In this document: positions 10,460 to 64,000 of the stretch, in pieces
How positions within the stretch are numbered: position 1 is the first letter of the stretch
Layout: each line of letters starts with the position of its first letter
Source of the DNA: Apophysomyces variabilis
Taxonomy: Eukaryota; Mucoromycota; Mucoromycetes; Mucorales; Mucoraceae
Assembly (NCBI GenBank): GCA_002749535.1
Contig: MZZL01000384.1
Coordinates: 255,410-319,409 of the forward strand
DNA length: 64,000 nt
Direction: 5' to 3'
Notes under the pieces: model-generated
Told to the model about the DNA's origin: nothing
Databases searched by the model: none
The model's input: only the letters and a program-made list of their open reading frames with translations
Made by a program: the position numbers and the translations under genes

Positions 10460-10847
10460 AGTATAATTGTCTTCTGCCAAGTTTCATTCCACAGGATACT
10501 AGTTTCCACTGCGGTCCACCAAAAAAATCGGGTGCATTCATGTGGTCCCAGTTCCCCGGCAAAAACTCCATGAGGACTGCGGAGATAGCCGCTGATATGG
10601 TGCTGTCAAAATTATAGTAATGCAAATATGCCTTCCTCAACTAACTAGCAGAAACCTTTACAACATAGTTTATGTCAAACAATGAAGATGAAGTTCAATT
10701 ATTCAATTGTGAATAACACATGTCAGTTTAGGTTACGCGTTCTACATTCTTTTAGATATTACTACAAGTCTCTTCGGCTCGTTCCACTGCGTCCGATAGA
10801 TCATAATCGCTTAGTAACACTGGCAAAGTCATGTGGATCTCACTCAC
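10460..10847. other. Short spacer: RabGAP promoter and possible Fanzor 3' end / omega-RNA zone
   Basis: Only 388 bp separate the Fanzor stop from the RabGAP start codon. In this family the guide RNA is typically made from the 3' end of the gene and the element end just beyond it, so any omega-RNA would map here on the minus strand. The same bases must serve as the RabGAP promoter. No terminal inverted repeat or target-site duplication could be fixed by eye. A 64-codon minus frame at 10446-10640 covers the same bases but has no coding support. Confidence 0.35.
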
Positions 10848-13800
10848 CTATGCGAACTGAGTCACTTGCATGTCTTGCTTGGGGTTCGTCCCGGCAATTG
10901 GTTTCTTTTTTTGAAAAGGTGATGGTCGGTTATTGTTATTGAGAGCCATATGCTCTGCAACACGTCTAATATTTCTGCTGGCGTTACAATCGCAATTCCA
11001 AACCGTTTTGCATTGTTCGCAGTGCACGACGGCATGCAACGACTGACCCAGCGATCCTTTTTACGTTACTCAGTTTCTCTGCTCCATAGCCAGAACAAAT
11101 TATGGACGTTTTGAACTCGTCAACGTCTACGACCTTGCATCGTCCTCTGGCTTTATTCTCTTTAATCTTTCTTCTAATGATGTTGGAAGTTCCTGCTCGT
11201 GTGCCTTTCAGTCGGATGCGGCGTAGCCTTTGATCATTTATTTCTACTATCATAGTCAATCTTTTAAATTATCTGTTGACTTTTACCTCGCAAATGTATT
11301 CGGCAGCCTTCGACAACTAGTTCTCTTCAATTTTCCAGGGAAGAGTCCAAACGACGACGACTTGTCCATGTCAGCGACAAAGCATCTATTTTTTCATTTT
11401 AACTCTTACCTCGGTTCAGTATCCGAAATTTCCGTTCGCTTAACAGTTCCTGCCTTGGCCTTGTTTTGTCGTTTCCGGCGTTTCTTCTTTTGCTTACGAT
11501 GTGTTCTCTGATTTCTGGTGTTTTTTGTAGGATATTTGCTGCCACCGGATATTAAACGTTCCGCAAACTCGTCACTAGCGTGTTGGCCACCAATATGTCT
11601 TCAATGAGCGGTACATAAAGTTAATGATGCACGTAGAATGACGATTTTAAGGTTACCGCCAAAACGGAGGCTTGCATACCTCTTAGCGTAGTATTGGTGT
11701 AAAGTCAACATATGCAACAATAAAAAGCGAGCATAACGATCGAACTGAGATATACTGGCCGTCTTCGCGCTAGGCATATCTTTTTCGATTTGCTGGATCT
11801 TAGGCTTTTGTTTTTCATATGGTCAATGATAGTTTTGCTTGCGTTGTAATGGGCGAGGTGATAAAATTCTTTCTTCGATGATAATATGATCTCATGGCTA
11901 TATTTTTCATGACCATTGCTGGCAACATACGCATCCGTTATCCCAGGATCTACGCCTCTCAAGTCAAAGCCATGCAGATTCCCCTGAAAGTCCTTCATAG
12001 TTTTTGCCGACTTATCTTCAGTCAAATGTTGCCTTTTCCTGGAGAACGTAAACGCCGCTGTGTAACCGTCTGTTGCGAGTGACCGAAACATTTTTTGGTT
12101 TGATTTCTCCATTTCATCCAATGATCGTATTTCTTTTGTCTTTGTGAAATCAAACGATTCCCAAAACATTTCGTCTTTGTTTGCTCTTTGGCTAACTCCA
12201 ACCAACGATGCTAATGTTTGGTGATCTATTTGGATATATCGCCAGGTAGTTGCCGTTCGTGGCATGATTGTAAATAGACGTTCGCTGGAACCTTGGATTT
12301 TTGGCATAAAAGCCCCTCTGACCAATTTTCTAGCAGTTTTTGCCAAAAGCTTCTGTATATAAACATAGTCTACTGAAGAAATATCGTCTTTGAACATTGA
12401 TCGTATCTCTTTCTCGAATAAGTTTGGCGCATTAAGAGATGTTTGCTTAGCGCAAAGAATTATACATATGACACCGTTGTCGTTTGCTTTTTCAAGCTAT
12501 ATCCCATTTTTAACATGATGAATTCCCCCCTTTTTGTTTAGGTAAATCTTCGGCTAGACTACAAATAGCTTTTCGGGTCCTCCCTACAAAGAGTGAATTT
12601 TTTTCGTCTTGAAAGATTCTTGAAACTCTCTAATTTTTCTGAAAATTTGGGAAATAACCATCCTCGAGAAGGGATCGGCATCGGTTTGCGGACTGGTGTA
12701 TCACCTAAAGGCTCGAGGTCCTCGAGGATTTCGTACAGAGGCCGCGTATAGACATGAGGTTTAGCCGCCAGCTCGGTTGACGTGGTAGGAATATTTTTAG
12801 GACAAATATTGACATTCTGCAAGACCGTATTGATTGCGGTCTTGAATTTGTCCCTTGGCACAACTGAGTACGGATAATGCGGTTGTCCCTTTGCCCCAAT
12901 GTCATAGGCAAACTTGGCCAGTTTCTTTATACCTTCCGTTGTGATATCTATCTTGAGCTTTTCCTGCGTTTGCACAAAGTGCGTTAACCTAAAACATTGA
13001 CAGGTGTTCTACTTACCAGCTCAATTTGGAGACAGTATTTGATATACTTCTCCATACGTTGACTATAATTTTCGACTACATGATTGGAAACCGCGACTGC
13101 CATTTGAGCACATGTAGACGCGAAACAGTGCATTATATCACTGGATATGTCAACTAACGGTTTATCCTCTTGGCCTGTCCTTAATTTCGCATATTCCTTG
13201 TAGACAGTGTGCAAGTCTGCGAGAAATTCTGGTTGCTGTAGTATTTGCCTTGAGGTGATGTTTCTTCCAAAAATCATTTGTCCGCATGCATATAAAAAGT
13301 CCTGCTGAAAGCACAGATGCGGAATAGGCTTGCTGTTGGATAATCGCCAAAGGACAAAGCGTGAAGAAAGTAGCTCAGTTTCTTGCGTCAAAGCTAACCA
13401 CATTTCATGCGTGAGAGTTCAGCACAACAAAAAGAGAATACTAACTTTTTATAGATGTCTGCAAGTCTCTTATTCTAAGCAATATGTTTTCGCTGCACAC
13501 CGCAGCCAAACTGATCTTTCTCGTGTACTGTAGGGGCGACTCCCCTAATCGTTCTTTGGCATCTTCCGATTTGGATGCGATATGGCTTGGACACAGGCTG
13601 CTTTAACGGCGAGAATGTGATCGCATTGTCCTTGGCGACGAAATTTTACAGGTTTTGCGGTATTTGTTGGGATCGGTTATATAGACTTTATAGGATTCTT
13701 CGATCTTTGCCGCTTTTTTTCGCCTCGCCTCGACTCCTTCTCCTCATCGGTCTTCTTTCTTTTCTTTCGGACAGGTGAAGCTGTAGTTGGTTCGCAGACT

Positions 13801-14041
13801 GTCTTCAGCCACTTCACGGTACTCTCTGACACTTGAGGAAGATCCACTTGGCAAGAGTGTCTAATACAATATCTTAAAATAGTGAATCGCTAGTAAAAGC
13901 GATACCTCCGTTATCGTCTTCATCAGTTGATGACACTTCTGTTTTCTAACGTCTGCCATTGCCATTAATATGACGTTCTTGTACAATACATTTCGTCATA
14001 TCTGTACTTTTCATTGTTGATTTGCGCTTTTTAGGTGGCAT
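10848..14041 (-). pseudogene. Fanzor (TnpB-like RNA-guided endonuclease family), degenerate
   Basis: Successive frames on the minus strand together outline one Fanzor-type protein. It starts at ATG 14041-14039 with MPPKKRKS, a classic nuclear localisation signal, followed by a Lys/Arg-rich segment (PVRKKRKK near 13770). The helical N-terminal lobe lies at 13403-12984 (VENYSQRMEKYIKYCLQIEL) and 12975-12559. The core at 12397-11705 carries SLATDGYTAAFTF and RuvC-I in GVDPGITDA, with Asp at 11950-11948. In another frame, MPSAKTASISQFDRYARF follows (about 11800-11740). RuvC-II is VVDVDEFKTS, with Glu at 11118-11116. The zinc ribbon reads CSGYG...CEQC, so one Cys is Tyr. RuvC-III is WNCDCNASRNI, with Asp at 10991-10989, and the stop is TAG at 10850-10848. 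Frame changes near 13010, 12400-12560, 11790 and 11030 have no usable introns, and stops interrupt other joins. All three acidic positions survive, but the gene cannot be read through as it stands. Fanzors are eukaryotic relatives of transposon TnpB nucleases guided by an omega-RNA; activity here is unlikely. Confidence 0.85.
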
Positions 14042-15791
14042 CTCCTTGAAACTCGGAAGGAAAAAGAAGAAGCTTAAAGAAGAAAAGCGTAAAAGAAGAT
14101 TGGAATAAAAGAAGGAAAACGATCAAACGTATATGACAGAATAACTTTGTGATAAATGACTGAATCATTATGATGAAGACCGTAATAAATTGATATGGGT
14201 ATCTCTTCCGTTACCAAGGGAAACCATCTGAAGCTCCTCTGACCATGATCAATGCCGATGGATGACTCGCCGTTAAATATTCTCAAAAAAGATTTGATGT
14301 GTGGATCATTTAACGCACAATTACACTACTCGTAATTGTTCTCCTTATGTATTATATAATTGCTTAGGTAGCTATGTTTACCTTTGAGTCTGGTTCGTTC
14401 TTTTGACAACAGTGGTCAACGAAATCTCCATGTCCAGTATGTAGTGATTGCTTGTATTAAGATATTCATATTTCACAGGTTCATGTTATCTTGATTAACG
14501 AAGGAATAAGCATTCAGATGTGCATTGATCGCAGCGACGCAGTTATACATATCCATGGCGAAATGGATGGCTTATGCGTTGGAAGCGCTACCAAGCAACG
14601 TGGCAGAATAGTAAGACAACATTTATTGGCTCACCGAGAATGGTTAGTGCCTAAGCAAGTTAGATAATGTATTATGAAAAAGAAGCAAAAAAATGCGAAG
14701 TAAGTGTCTTTCAAGCAAAGTCAAAATGGCGATAATTCCTCAAAGGACATTTCGCAGTTTGACTATTTCCCAAGAAATCGAGACGAGGTTACCCAGCAAA
14801 CACATCCCAATAGTATAGCAACGACTATTCAGATTAATGCCTGTTTTTCGGCCTCCTCACTGATTGTTAGGTATCCGTAGAAACAAAATAGCTTTCTCTC
14901 ACATGCTGCAGTGGTGGAAAAAGCGGATCGTGCAGGATCAAAGTTTCCTGTCACGGCTTTTACGAATAAAGACACCGTTGTCTAAGGATGGACACCCTTG
15001 GCCTGGCTCGCTTCGCAGCGCACCCGCCTTCTCCCTCCCACACCCCATCATCCCACCGCACACCCATTTATTTGGTGTCAGGTATAGGTTCATTAGACAC
15101 ATATTGCAGCAACGGTGGAAGTAATCTTTGAAGCTGCTTACACAGCTTCTCCTGGCTAAGTACGAAAAGCTATTCTCAGTGCTTGAAGAGGCAATTGTGT
15201 CAGAGGATGATATGGAAACGATTGTTGAAAACCTATTCCAAGTGCATGAAGAGGCTATTGGCCGGCTGTTATTGTTATTTGTGAAGCTGTATACAATATT
15301 CTCAGGATAGTACGGACAGAAACAACTCATAATATATAAATACGCCTTGAAGTAGAGAGGAGGGCAAGAGCTCTCTTTTTGTAACCATGAGATGATTCTT
15401 TTTTAAGTGTGGTGACTATGTTTTTGATTGTAAAACGTTGCAATGATCACTCATCTTTCTGTTTTGGTTTATTGAGTAACAGTGATTTTCCCTTTTCCTG
15501 TATTGATGGATGAGGGTAATGCAGCCCAGTTTTGTTTTTTTTTGTAGAAAACAGTGGCTTCCCTAATATATTCGCTAATTTTCAAATATGGAAATGGGTT
15601 TGAAAAGGCAATCGGAATGAAAGTTTTCTGCGAATGAGGTAGCAACGATATCTGAAAAGTTTGCCTTGAATGGAAATTTGTGGTCCTTCAAGACCTTTTA
15701 TGTGGGGCCCAACGCCAAAACGACATTTCTTTAGTATAATGTTGTGATGTGATGTGAGTTGTGATTGTGATGATATAATGTGATAAATTCA
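14042..15791. other. Intergenic, possible left arm of the Fanzor-carrying element; no supported gene
   Basis: This lies upstream of the Fanzor start and downstream of the acyl-CoA ligase stop. One + strand frame at 15128-15310 (60 codons) would form an amphipathic helix, but its start context, neighbours and length do not support a gene. A more GC-rich patch lies at 14990-15060. Beyond about 15350 the DNA is AT-rich 3' flank, with short ttgtgatgtgatgtga-like repetition at 15740-15780. Confidence 0.35.
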
Positions 15792-18035
15792 TTAATTGAT
15801 ACGCTTTTCATATCCTTTCCACAAGTCCTTCCTCAAGATGAATTTCTGAATTTTGCCTGTAAAAAGGGTGAATAACCAATGTTTTGTTTCTACAAAAAAT
15901 GTCTTACCGGTACTATGTAAGTTTTATGCGACATTTACAACCCGCTACAGTTAGTATTTCATTATCATCAAAATGACACTGCACTTGCCTTGTTTTAGGA
16001 AGCTCGTTGATAAACAGGACTTTGGAAGGACACTATTTAGCAGTAAAATAAGAGAAAAAGAATATGTCTTCCTTGAATTGTAAACACGTACTTTGTATCC
16101 TGCAAGTTTCTTTCGGCAATGAGCAATCACCGCTTCTGCCGTTAACGAGCGTCCATTCCTCAAGACAATAAAGGCATAGGGTCGCTCACCCCATTTATCA
16201 TCAGGGCCTCCCACAATTGCACTACGTTTTCGTAGATGAACCAAGTCTCTTATCAAAATCGCTTTTCCTTTTTCCACTCTTATCCTAATACAAACCATTC
16301 TGAAACCTCCTCTAGCTGGACAATCACACCTTCCACTTCAATAGAACTGATATTCTCACCACCGGAAACAATCACGTCCTTGCTGCGGTCGACAATCTCA
16401 ATGGCTCCATCCGGATGGCGGACAGCGAGATCACCCGACCAAAACACTCCGGCACGGAAAGCCTTTTTGGTTTCTTCCGGGTCCTTATAATATCCCATCA
16501 TGGTCTGGTTTCCCGTAAAGCAGATCTCACCGATGGTTTTGCCATTAGGAACCACATCCTTCGCCGTCTCACGGTCTAGCACGCGAAGTTCGTCATTCAC
16601 AATCATACCAAATCCTTGTCGTGCCAACAGCCTCACTTGCTCCTCTTCCGGTAAGTCCAGCAACAGAGTAGGGTTATAGGTCATGGCCGCAGGTCCATAG
16701 GTTTCCGTCAGACCGTAGATATGAACCGGATGAATGTTCAATTTCCTCAACCGTGACATGGTTGTGCTTGATAATGCAGACCCTACATAAAAAAAAACCT
16801 CTTAGGATAAGCATTTGGAAACAAACAAGCAAGCACACGCACACAGAAACATCTATGTCCATGTATCTCGATTGTAAATGTATATCTTAACGATGAATGA
16901 AAGTTTCTTTCTCACCTCCAACCATGACACGAATAGGATGATCTAAACGGGTGGCATCCTTATGATTACAAATTTCATTTTGAACAGTAGGTGCACCACA
17001 GTAATGTGTCACCCCAGCTTCTTTAAGTAGCTTCCAGATGTAGGTATAATCCATCTTATTAAGCATGACTTGTGTACCTAAACCGTTCACCCTTCTTGTA
17101 AGTTCCAGCTGTGTTTCTCCGTTTCTCCTGTTTACTTACCTCCTACAGCAACGACAGCCCATGGAAAACACCACCCTATTATTCCCTTACACATGAGAGG
17201 ATGTAGAAAGATTGTTTTACTTACCGTTGCAGTGGAATAAAGGAGACGTCCATAGAAATACACTGTCCACAGAAAGACCATGATGTATGGATACGCCAAG
17301 GGCTGTGAGATAGGACCCACGGTAACTATTCACGACGCCTTTAGGCCTTCCAGTGGACCCAGAGGTATAGTTGATGGAGATGGTATCGTTTTCATTGGCA
17401 TCCAGTGCCAAATCGGTCCATGGGATTGTCGCTTTGCAGCCTTCCAATAAGCGATCGTAATGATCGTCTTGCTCGGCATCCGAAATGTGGATCAATTTTA
17501 AGGATACTTTCACTGCTGGCGTAAGAAGATGTAACAGTTCATCCTGGACCAAGACAACGGACGCACCGGAATGTGTAAGGATGTATTCGATTTCTGCTGC
17601 AGCCAGACGCGTATTTAATGGTACCATCACAGCACCAGCAGCGGGTACGGCATAGTGGGCTTCTACCACAGATGGAATATTCTGACAAAGAATGGCCACC
17701 CTGTCCCCTCGTCGAACACCATAGTCCAGTAGCAATACGTTTGCCAATCTTCTACAACGTTCTGCAAATTCTTGATAGGTATACGACTTTTGCCGATGGA
17801 TGATAGCAGTTTTATGAGCATACACCAACGCACTACGAAGCAGGAAACGCACAGGATTGAGAGCGGTGAAGTTTGGAGGTTCATTCGAACGCCTAGCGAT
17901 GCGTACTGAGACAGAGCGTTATTATTGATCCTATAGAAGAAGAAGAAAGAAATGATTCTTACGTGATTCGAAGGAACTTCCACCTTGTATATGTTGTGAG
18001 ATTCGCTGCAGGCGCTGATGTGCTGCACTAGACAT
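15792..18035 (-). CDS. Acyl-CoA synthetase / AMP-dependent ligase (plant AAE- and ACN1-like class)
   Basis: This enzyme would activate a short- or medium-chain carboxylic acid to its CoA thioester through an acyl-adenylate. It starts at ATG 18035 (MSSAAHQRLQRISQH), with an intron from C|GTAAGA to CTCAG|TACGC. The P-loop motif YTSGSTGRPKG lies near residue 190. The segment FLWTSPLFHCNGWCFPW is typical of the AAE/ACN1 branch. Later motifs are YGLTETYGP, GEICFTGNQTMMGYYKDPE, SGDLAV, DRSKDVIVSGGENIS and, in the last exon, GKIQKFILRKDLW, whose TGK/K region is the C-terminal catalytic lysine hinge. It ends KRIN, TAA at 15794-15792. The C-terminus is not an SKL-type peroxisomal signal, although relatives are often peroxisomal. 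About seven introns were inferred; two near the C-terminus are less certain. A CACGTG box lies 131 bp upstream. The preferred acid cannot be told from sequence. Confidence 0.88.
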
Positions 18036-61471: not shown

Positions 61472-62326
61472 TCGTTTATCATCTTCTTTTTCTTTTTTTT
61501 TCTTTAAATTTGTTTTTTCCTTTTCCACGCTTTATGTTGTGTACAAAGAACCACTCAACCTACTCCCAAAACCAAAAAACAAAAATCACCCCAAAAAAAA
61601 CACATCCAAGACGCGCTTCTCTATGCACCCTTTTTCTCTTTTCTCTTCAAAATTCTTTTTGCTTTCTACTAATTAAGAAAATTGTTTAGTTCTGTTGTTA
61701 TTCCTGTATGTTTTTTTTTCTCCCTATTCCGTTTGTATCATGTTTCATTCGTATTGCATTTTGCTTTTTTAATTCGTTTTTGTTGTTCTTTGCTTATTTT
61801 CCTTGCTTTTTCTATTGTATGTAAAAACCCACAATAACTATGCCGGTACAGTTTTATTCTCCAAAAAAAAAAATCCCCCACAAAAAAAAAAGGTCAAACG
61901 CCCAATCATACGAAGTAAAAAATCCTCATTAAAAAGGTATATATATCTACCTTCTATTTTACCGTTCTTTTCTTTTGCTGGTTGTACTGTTTAAACTTTG
62001 CAAAAAAAAAAGTTTTATTACAAACTTTGGTTCTGTATTATATCCAGAAAACAAAATATTTCTTGCTTTTTCTTTTTTCTTTTTTACACACGGAAGTTTT
62101 GGTGAGGGGCGGCTTGAACCCGGGTAATTGCGTCCATCAGTTGGTTAATTGCCTGTTCTTTGTTCTCCTCATATTTCGCTCTAATTTCCGCAATCTTGGC
62201 ATCCGTTTCCTGATCGACTTTGACCAAACTCTGATCCGATTCACCCGAGTGCTAAGGGGAAAAGAGATAAATAAAATGACATCTCTTTGCTCAATCCTTT
62301 TCTTTTCTTTTCTTTTTTTTTTTTTT
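61472..62326. repeat. 855-bp direct repeat, copy 1
   Basis: Identical, at a constant offset of 1,176 bp wherever checked, to 62648-63502, including long homopolymers. It includes a copy of the last V-ATPase G exon on the minus strand at 62251-62084. Identity through homopolymers beside an N gap suggests an assembly duplicate rather than a real tandem repeat. Confidence 0.85.
62084..62251 (-). pseudogene. Duplicated last exon of V-ATPase subunit G (probable assembly copy)
   Basis: Identical to exon 4 of the complete gene (63427-63260): HSGESDQSLVKVDQE to FRV and TAA, preceded by the same TTAG acceptor. There are no upstream exons; the gap of N follows directly. It should not be counted as a second gene. 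Confidence 0.85.
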
Positions 62327-62647
62327 NNNNNNNNNNNNNNNNNNNNNNNNNNNNNNNNNNNNNNNNNNNNNNNNNNNNNNNNNNNNNNNNNNNNNNNNNN
62401 NNNNNNNNNNNNNNNNNNNNNNNNNNNNNNNNNNNNNNNNNNNNNNNNNNNNNNNNNNNNNNNNNNNNNNNNNNNNNNNNNNNNNNNNNNNNNNNNNNNN
62501 NNNNNNNNNNNNNNNNNNNNNNNNNNNNNNNNNNNNNNNNNNNNNNNNNNNNNNNNNNNNNNNNNNNNNNNNNNNNNNNNNNNNNNNNNNNNNNNNNNNN
62601 NNNNNNNNNNNNNNNNNNNNNNNNNNNNNNNNNNNNNNNNNNNNNNN
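62327..62647. other. Assembly gap (321 N)
   Basis: A run of N bounded on the left by the T-tract that closes repeat copy 1 and on the right by the first base of repeat copy 2. The content is unknown and may be nothing at all if the repeat is artefactual. Confidence 0.99.
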
Positions 62648-63502
62648 TCGTTTATCATCTTCTTTTTCTTTTTTTTTCTTTAAATTTGTTTTTTCCTTTT
62701 CCACGCTTTATGTTGTGTACAAAGAACCACTCAACCTACTCCCAAAACCAAAAAACAAAAATCACCCCAAAAAAAACACATCCAAGACGCGCTTCTCTAT
62801 GCACCCTTTTTCTCTTTTCTCTTCAAAATTCTTTTTGCTTTCTACTAATTAAGAAAATTGTTTAGTTCTGTTGTTATTCCTGTATGTTTTTTTTTCTCCC
62901 TATTCCGTTTGTATCATGTTTCATTCGTATTGCATTTTGCTTTTTTAATTCGTTTTTGTTGTTCTTTGCTTATTTTCCTTGCTTTTTCTATTGTATGTAA
63001 AAACCCACAATAACTATGCCGGTACAGTTTTATTCTCCAAAAAAAAAAATCCCCCACAAAAAAAAAAGGTCAAACGCCCAATCATACGAAGTAAAAAATC
63101 CTCATTAAAAAGGTATATATATCTACCTTCTATTTTACCGTTCTTTTCTTTTGCTGGTTGTACTGTTTAAACTTTGCAAAAAAAAAAGTTTTATTACAAA
63201 CTTTGGTTCTGTATTATATCCAGAAAACAAAATATTTCTTGCTTTTTCTTTTTTCTTTTTTACACACGGAAGTTTTGGTGAGGGGCGGCTTGAACCCGGG
63301 TAATTGCGTCCATCAGTTGGTTAATTGCCTGTTCTTTGTTCTCCTCATATTTCGCTCTAATTTCCGCAATCTTGGCATCCGTTTCCTGATCGACTTTGAC
63401 CAAACTCTGATCCGATTCACCCGAGTGCTAAGGGGAAAAGAGATAAATAAAATGACATCTCTTTGCTCAATCCTTTTCTTTTCTTTTCTTTTTTTTTTTT
63501 TT
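62648..63502. repeat. 855-bp direct repeat, copy 2
   Basis: The copy that is continuous with the true V-ATPase G gene: it contains the genuine last exon and the 3' flank. Its start is the base immediately after the N run, so its left border is set by the gap and not by biology. Confidence 0.85.
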
Positions 63503-64000
63503 CGCTATCTAGCCCTTGCTTTGGTTTCCCTTGCTATATCCTTTTTTATATCTTACCTGAGCAACAAAGTTTTGATATTCAGCAGCCTTCTGGGCCTTGA
63601 GATCATCAATATCTTTGGCAGCCTCGGTACGGGCATCCTTTAAACGCTGTACACGATCTAGTCAAATACATTCAAGTTAAGGAAAAGGCTTATTCCAAAG
63701 AGAGAGATAAAGAGAGACGCGCACGCGCGCTATGGAAGTTGGAGTTTTATGATGGTAAAAAACGTACATTGTTTAGCACTTGTGACGATCTTGGCGGCTT
63801 CACGTTCGGCCTCCAAAAGAGTGTTGATACCTTGCGAGCTTGAAGCAGACTATAGACATAGACAGCGAAATAAAAAAAAAAAAGAAAAAGGAAAAAAGAA
63901 AGCGGTTCGCATGTCAGAGGAGCAAGCAAAATGCATAATATGAAAGATGGAGCCATCTCTGTGTGTTGTGGCGGCATCTCTTTTTCTTCTTCTTTACCAT
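63260..64000 (-). CDS. VMA10: V-type proton ATPase subunit G
   Basis: A peripheral-stalk subunit of the vacuolar proton pump. Four exons join in frame: 64000-63998 (ATG alone), 63849-63768, 63657-63557 and 63427-63260, total 354 nt = 117 residues plus TAA, the normal length. The N-terminus SASSSQGINTLLEAEREA and the stalk helix AAKIVTSAKQYRVQRLKDAR are hallmark subunit G sequences, followed by EAAKDIDDLKAQKAAEYQNF and the helical tail ending QNFRV. The ATG occupies exactly the last three bases of the window and is split off by a GTAAAG donor. The complete gene therefore just fits; its promoter is outside. Confidence 0.94.

What the first reader, a model, noticed from the sequence alone, without database searches (positions are those of the whole stretch)
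10848..14041. Fanzor (TnpB-type RNA-guided nuclease) relic with all three RuvC acidic positions kept
Seen: NLS-like start MPPKKRKS, TDGY block, GVDPGITDA (RuvC-I), VVDVDEFKTS (RuvC-II), zinc ribbon and WNCDCNASRNI (RuvC-III), in the right order over 3.2 kb on the minus strand. Established: eukaryotic Fanzors are transposon-encoded TnpB relatives that cut DNA under guide-RNA control. Inference: this copy was recently active in the lineage and has intact relatives elsewhere in the genome.
Basis: partly seen in the sequence, partly recalled or inferred. Interest (0 to 1): 0.85.

Follow-up and report, generated by a model that had tools for sequence, protein, structure and literature searches.

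The report
Decayed Fanzor1 transposon copy
This stretch is a worn-out copy of a jumping gene that once encoded a Fanzor, a relative of CRISPR-type RNA-guided DNA cutters; it has about a dozen sister copies in the same genome and is a new example of a known kind rather than a new kind.

Summary
In detail: window 14041-10848 (minus strand) carries the Fanzor1 marks in order. All 10 sister copies found exceed Pfam's TNB cut-off; the window's own domain, split by a frameshift, does not. This copy is broken: frames interrupted, about 50 nt of the RuvC-II stretch lost, one zinc cysteine now tyrosine. The acidic triad is kept, but 10, 10 and 11 of 11 copies keep its three positions, so this says little about activity. 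'Recently active' is not supported: 11 star-like copies, 93-96% identical, with private changes even over codon positions, point to an older burst and neutral decay. The element is larger than reported (about 15741-10764): fixed right end (11 of 11), variable left end (6 of 12 start inside), no terminal inverted repeats. A younger Fanzor1 family shares the left tip and most of the right terminus ACTTGT|TA; one of its copies shows a 12-bp target duplication at a shortened left end. Closest described case: the unclassified MCi-2 family of Mucor. Guide RNA and transposition mechanism remain inferred.

The parts
10764..15741 (-). Fanzor1 element, window copy (family A), left tip ACATTATACTAAAG to right end GACTTGT
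   Evidence: End points shared with sister copies
14993..15741 (-). Left module, also found at places without family-A sequence in the fetched stretch and, for its first 110-190 nt, in family B
13947..14041 (-). N-terminal frame MPPKKRKS..., stops after 31 codons
   Evidence: by eye; ATG in 9 of 11 copies; MPPRKR start in family B
12984..13418 (-). Open block before a 53-nt GTAAGT...CAG intron candidate
   Evidence: intron not tested by RNA
12559..13008 (-). Open block after the intron candidate
11705..12496 (-). 263-aa frame with TDG (WED) and DPG (RuvC-I)
   Evidence: no Pfam family over cut-off
12065..12073 (-). TDG motif codons
   Evidence: 11 of 11 copies
11930..11956 (-). GVDPGITDA, RuvC-I; catalytic D at 11950-11948
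   Evidence: D in 10 of 11 copies
11104..11133 (-). VVDVDEFKTS with the alternative glutamate at 11118-11116, six residues before the first zinc cysteine
   Evidence: E in 10 of 11 copies; definition in PMC10711439 section 23
11010..11097 (-). Zinc finger; second cysteine (11088-11086) is tyrosine in this copy only; split by a frameshift
10968..11000 (-). WNCDCNASRNI, RuvC-III; catalytic D at 10991-10989
   Evidence: D in 11 of 11 copies
10764..10847 (-). 3' non-coding stretch where a guide RNA would be expected (inferred)
   Evidence: Conserved in sister and older copies; folding not informative

Best explanation
The locus is a decayed copy of a multi-copy, roughly 5-kb Fanzor1 transposable element in a eukaryotic (probably early-diverging fungal) genome. 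Intact, the gene would have encoded a nuclear RNA-guided DNA endonuclease; by analogy with studied Fanzors and TnpBs, a guide RNA from the right end would direct cuts at sites matching the flank and so favour keeping or copying the element (inferred, not shown here). No transposase was recognised in the element and it has no terminal inverted repeats, so machinery from another element probably moved it, joining a fixed right end to targets that start with TA while the left end was often lost. The family evolved under purifying selection, spread in a burst, then decayed neutrally (supported by substitution patterns).
For: Fanzor1 marks in order, TDG 11 of 11, RuvC-I D 10 of 11, alternative E 10 of 11, RuvC-III D 11 of 11. 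TNB over cut-off in 10 of 10 sister copies; TnpB-type models match a sister exon as a fragment, below their full-length cut-offs; 18 PDB matches of TnpB/Cas12/Fanzor type with a genome TNB profile. Eleven near-full copies, 93.1-96.3% identical, one right end. Private changes 102/101/108 by codon position; third-position excess against two older relatives, 113/103/152 and 55/50/79. TA directly follows the right end in 9 of 11 family-A copies and, after two extra bases, in the other two; in 10 of 10 family-B ends.
Against: The window's own TNB halves are below cut-off. The WED/RuvC-I part has no match over threshold in Pfam, PHROGs, NCBIfam or PDB. AlphaFold models are too poor to test the fold (pLDDT 37 and 36). 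A read-through protein search found nothing at E 0.001. No support for a structured guide RNA: z -0.8, 1 of 61 pairs with changes on both sides. Shared, not only private, changes are even over codon positions (28/26/31), so selection inside the burst is not visible. Host not named by any search.
Confidence: 0.85

Rival explanations
1. On the element ends: left-end variability is ordinary later loss (deletions, nested insertions), and the elements move by a conventional mechanism that I failed to recognise.
For: L032 keeps the left tip next to an internal deletion; the L035 copy looks split by an inserted element with inverted ends (by eye); 15 of 16 left/right pairs show no convincing target duplication.
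Against: Right ends show no such loss: 11 of 11 agree. One shortened family-B copy has an exact 12-bp duplication directly at both junctions, so that short end was made at insertion. Left flanks of two shortened copies are single-copy DNA.
Confidence: 0.5
2. On the element ends: copying starts at the right end and may stop early, as in target-primed reverse transcription, giving fixed right ends, shortened left ends and duplications of about 12 bp.
For: Fixed right and variable left ends; a 12-bp duplication at one shortened end; MCi-2 of Mucor is described with fuzzy 5' ends and 11-12 bp duplications.
Against: Only 1 of 16 pairs has a clear duplication, and crossed pairs reached 11 by chance. 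An intron candidate is kept in the copies, which argues against a spliced sense RNA template. No reverse transcriptase seen in the ORFs scanned.
Confidence: 0.2
3. The locus is not a TnpB relative; the motifs are chance or belong to another transposase.
For: Window pieces alone have no Pfam match over cut-off.
Against: 10 of 10 sister copies are over the TNB cut-off; TnpB-type models and PDB entries match; DPG, alternative glutamate and TDG occur together in the right order.
Confidence: 0.02
4. A domesticated host gene derived from Fanzor and still under selection.
For: Kept acidic triad in the window copy.
Against: Broken frames, loss of a zinc cysteine and about 50 nt; private changes even over codon positions; multi-copy.
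Confidence: 0.02

Closest known systems
Fanzor1 family MCi-2 of Mucor circinelloides (Bao and Jurka 2013, PMC3627910; passages seen)
   Same: Fanzor1 gene; shared 3' part with differing 5' regions; fuzzy 5' ends; no recognisable inverted repeats; duplications of 11-12 bp there, one of 12 bp in family B here
   Different: MCi-2 copies are about 99% identical in the 3' part, with ATAATTNNNN(N) duplications and a partial Crypton transposase in one subfamily; here family A is 93-96% identical, no duplication found in family A, and the one in family B is TATACGCAACGG. Sequences not compared (supplement not available).
SpuFz1 of Spizellomyces punctatus and PpFz1 of Parasitella parasitica, solved Fanzor1 nucleases (PMC10432273, PMC11423790; passages seen)
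   Same: Fanzor1; TNB exon profile of this genome matches 8gkh
   Different: Those are active proteins with known guide RNA and TAM; this copy is broken and neither was determined. The RuvC-I half shows no sequence match to them.
Bacterial TnpB (IS200/IS605, IS607)
   Same: TNB and RuvC-III region of a sister exon match the models as a fragment
   Different: DPG and the alternative glutamate are the published Fanzor fingerprint; intron candidate, NLS-like start and eukaryotic gene neighbours
Family B in the same genome (L056, L057, L058, L049)
   Same: TDG, DPG, MPPRKR start, left tip 77-89% identical to the window, right end ..TTGT|TA
   Different: Younger (95-98% over main stretches), interior unrelated at DNA level, RuvC-I stretch 26-28% identical

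Membership tests
Fanzor | DPG in RuvC-I | tested here: met
   P and G 11 of 11, D 10 of 11 copies
Fanzor | Alternative glutamate six residues before the zinc finger | tested here: met
   E-FKTSII-C in the window; E in 10 of 11 copies
Fanzor | C4 zinc finger | tested here: inconclusive
   Family: Cys1 9, Cys2 10, Cys3 10, Cys4 10 of 11 copies; window copy lacks Cys2
Fanzor | TNB (PF07282) over cut-off | tested here: met
   10 of 10 sister copies; not met by the window's split halves, 18.0 and 20.2 against 26.3 bits
Fanzor | RNA-guided DNA cleavage | not testable with these tools
   Needs an experiment
Fanzor | Guide RNA at the element's right end | tested here: inconclusive
   Fold z -0.8; 1 of 61 pairs with both sides changed
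Fanzor1 | TDG in the WED domain | tested here: met
   11 of 11 copies; listed as characteristic in PMC10711439
Fanzor1 | Carried by a transposable element | tested here: met
   11 near-full copies with a common right end and different flanks
Fanzor2 in IS607 elements | Serine recombinase TnpA in the element | tested here: inconclusive
   No Pfam family over cut-off in 13 ORFs of the window element; the element is decayed
MuDR-type Fanzor1 elements (MCi-4, ROr-4, PBl-3) | Terminal inverted repeats with 9-bp duplications | tested here: not met
   No inverted match beyond shuffles in the outer 120 nt of 3 copies; no 9-bp duplication in family A
MCi-2-like elements | Fixed 3' end, fuzzy 5' end, no inverted repeats | tested here: met
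   11 of 11 right ends; 6 of 12 left ends inside
MCi-2-like elements | 11-12 bp duplications ATAATTNNNN(N) | tested here: not met
   None convincing in family A; one of 12 bp in family B with another sequence

The most novel reading that the evidence does not exclude
Several Fanzor1 families of this genome are cargoes of one unrecognised transposition system with a common left tip and a common right terminus (ACTTGT joined to TA). Copying starts at the right, guide-RNA end and may stop anywhere, leaving shortened left ends with duplications of about 12 bp, like target-primed copying but with introns kept.
Probability: 0.12. Interest if true: 0.6.

Novelty: new member of a known kind. Interest (0 to 1): 0.3.

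Why it matters
The window copy is an ordinary relic. The families around it matter a little more: some Fanzor1 elements of Mucor were left unclassified because of fuzzy left ends, and this genome offers an old and a younger Fanzor1 family that share both termini, so how such elements move can be tested by comparing young insertions with empty sites.

Tried and rejected
Pfam with window pieces gave only sub-threshold TNB. PDB searches with RuvC-I pieces found nothing; a profile of four RuvC-I pieces gave one unrelated hit at E 5.3. A read-through protein search scored 6756 candidates, none at E up to 0.001. Two AlphaFold models were too poor (pLDDT 37 and 36), so no fold search was run. Guide-RNA folding was uninformative. 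Inverted or direct terminal repeats were no better than shuffles in 3 copies. One search used wrong right ends and is discarded; replace it. I first took the left module at C27:212111 as solo; it belongs to a family-B element. I first took L035 as shortened; it looks split by an inserted element with inverted ends (by eye), but its detached left part still starts inside the module. Alternative left modules for L031 and L037: rejected, flanks are single-copy. Literature searches (listings) found no paper with both Fanzor and Mucoromycota in the held library; subscription papers are not held.

Full report
What was checked. The window is C68:255410-319409 of an unnamed assembly of 38,696,054 bases in 126 contigs. 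Its other genes are ordinary eukaryotic ones: PRP8, ribosomal protein L3, an AMP-binding enzyme, an FMN-dependent dehydrogenase, a GRAM-domain protein and a calponin-homology protein. That the host is an early-diverging fungus is my inference from genome size and from the Fanzor1 families listed for Mucor, Rhizopus and Phycomyces; no call names it.

The observation. On the minus strand: MPPKKRKS at 14041; open blocks 13418-12984 and 13008-12559, with a 53-nt GTAAGT...CAG intron candidate at their junction; a 263-aa frame 12496-11705 with ATDGYTAAF and GVDPGITDA; VVDVDEFKTSIIC with its glutamate at 11118-11116; and, in a frame split by a frameshift, HCEQC and WNCDCNASRNI. DPG together with a glutamate six residues before the zinc finger is the published Fanzor fingerprint (PMC10711439, section 23 read), and TDG is given there as characteristic of Fanzor1 (passage).

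More than chance. PF07282 matches 73 places in the genome at E up to 0.001, 57 of them marked over the cut-off; only 150 of 164 candidates were scored, so these are lower bounds. All 10 sister copies of the window's element are over it (27.1-52.4 bits). The window's own domain, split by the frameshift, reaches 18.0 and 20.2 bits. One sister exon matches NCBIfam guided_TnpB, IS607_TnpB, IS200_TnpB and Cas12f2 as a fragment, below full-length cut-offs, and a PHROGs transposase family. A profile of eight TNB exons of this genome finds 18 PDB sequences, among them SpuFz1 (8gkh, E 0.0018). The WED/RuvC-I part has no such match; its identity rests on TDG, DPG, order and similarity to other families of the genome.

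State of the copy. The acidic positions are kept in 10, 10 and 11 of 11 copies, so their presence here is weak evidence of activity. The second zinc cysteine is tyrosine in the window only; four other copies lack one or another zinc cysteine. Compared with sister copies the window has 15 length differences between 14060 and 10757, one of about 50 nt in the RuvC-II stretch. Of seven blocks tested apart, each in its best frame, the window is open in five. L030 is open in all seven but lacks the first zinc cysteine; stretches between blocks were not tested. An intact family member was therefore neither shown nor strictly excluded.

Age and selection. Eleven near-full copies (window included) are 93.1-96.3% identical pairwise over 14041-10757, star-like. 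Each differs from the majority base by 2.3-4.0%; C-to-T and G-to-A are the most frequent changes. Private changes over four blocks are 102/101/108 by codon position, shared ones 28/26/31. Against two older relatives the third position is in excess: 113/103/152 and 55/50/79. My reading: purifying selection in the past, then a burst, then neutral decay.

The element. Similarity ends on the right at GACTTGT in 11 of 11 copies (10 letter for letter, one GACATGT), and two older relatives end within about 12 nt of it. On the left, of 12 left ends, five reach the tip at about 15741 (window, L033, L038, L041, L042), one keeps the tip beside an internal deletion (L032), and six start inside (L030, L031, L034, L036, L037 and the L035/L052 pair). 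Left flanks of L031 and L037 are single-copy. Outer 120 nt of three copies show no inverted repeats. No Pfam family reaches its cut-off in 13 ORFs of the window element.

Shared parts. The left module (15741 to about 14993) also occurs at C94:2043278 and C92:1011771 without family-A sequence in the 4.3 kb fetched at each. Its beginning also starts a second Fanzor1 family, B: identity to the window 88.6% over 193 nt (L057), 85.6% over 132 nt (L056), 77.0% over 113 nt (L058). Family B is otherwise unrelated at DNA level apart from short weak pieces, and 26-28% identical in the RuvC-I protein stretch. Its three fetched copies are 95-98% identical over their main stretches and have long open blocks with TDG, DPG and an MPPRKR start. 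Its TNB matches lie just under the cut-off, about 25.3 bits. Ten of 10 right ends read ..TTGT followed by TA, 8 of 10 with ACTTGT. In family A, TA follows directly in 9 of 11 copies and after AG in two. The family-B right end has 29 matches, 15 of them at 87% identity or more; I showed the left tip at four of those places and did not follow other left-tip matches.

Target duplications. Of 16 left/right pairs, one (family B at C27: L049 left, L059 right) has TATACGCAACGG exactly at both junctions, at a shortened left end. L057 has a 7-bp repeat 107 nt from the assumed boundary, within a repeat, and the other 14 have nothing convincing. In 418 own and crossed pairs the next best score was 11, a crossed pair far from a junction; length alone is thus modest evidence, the exact position at both junctions is what counts.

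How it most likely works. Shown: a Fanzor1-type gene, a multi-copy element, decay, fixed right and variable left ends, shared termini with family B. Inferred: RNA-guided cutting, a guide RNA at the right end, movement by another element's enzymes. The guide RNA has no support from folding or covariation. The nearest published case is MCi-2 of Mucor (passage), left unclassified by its authors; I could not compare sequences.

Verdict. A real, correctly recognised Fanzor1 relic, ordinary in itself. The sharing of both termini by two Fanzor1 families of different age is the point worth following.

Noticed in passing
L056, L057, L058, L049 (C95:1355500-1363000, C95:1901000-1908500, C90:93500-100500, C27:210500-214500): Younger Fanzor1 family B sharing left tip and right terminus with the window's family; 29 right-end matches in the genome.
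   Followed up: partly
L053 (C35:24000-30000): Another Fanzor1 family with TDG and DPG; nine places with the same score. A weak, sub-threshold DDE_3 match lies downstream (15.4 against 28.6 bits). A run of N lies in the locus.
   Followed up: partly
L055 (C79:222500-228500): Multi-copy family with several long ORFs and a 279-aa TNB-type ORF with GVDPGIRTTG and VNEYNTSKTC, TNB 24.4 bits; upstream ORFs have no Pfam match.
   Followed up: no
L056, L057, L058, L053: Repeated cysteine/histidine motif such as CPSCFGTDHSRSTSRLC, CSHCNLTTHSRITSRLC, CSTCGGTDHQRRTSKLC in or near Fanzor N-terminal ORFs; may be a zinc-knuckle shared by these elements.
   Followed up: no
L035 and L052 (C87:1158647-1164293): About 5.6 kb between two parts of one family-A copy; the two inner flanks look like reverse complements, so probably an inserted element with long inverted ends.
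   Followed up: partly
15750-15792 and left ends of L038, L041, L042, L057, L058: Left tips are preceded by CT- or CA-rich simple repeats in most full-length copies; part of the element or a target preference, unresolved.
   Followed up: partly
15792-17918: The element lies about 50 nt past the apparent stop codon of an AMP-binding (acyl-CoA synthetase-like) gene on the same strand (stop read by eye; ORFs).
   Followed up: partly
61919-63643: Two ORFs with the same beginning (KILIKKVYISTFYF...) about 1.2 kb apart, with a run of N between: a direct duplication or assembly artefact.
   Followed up: no
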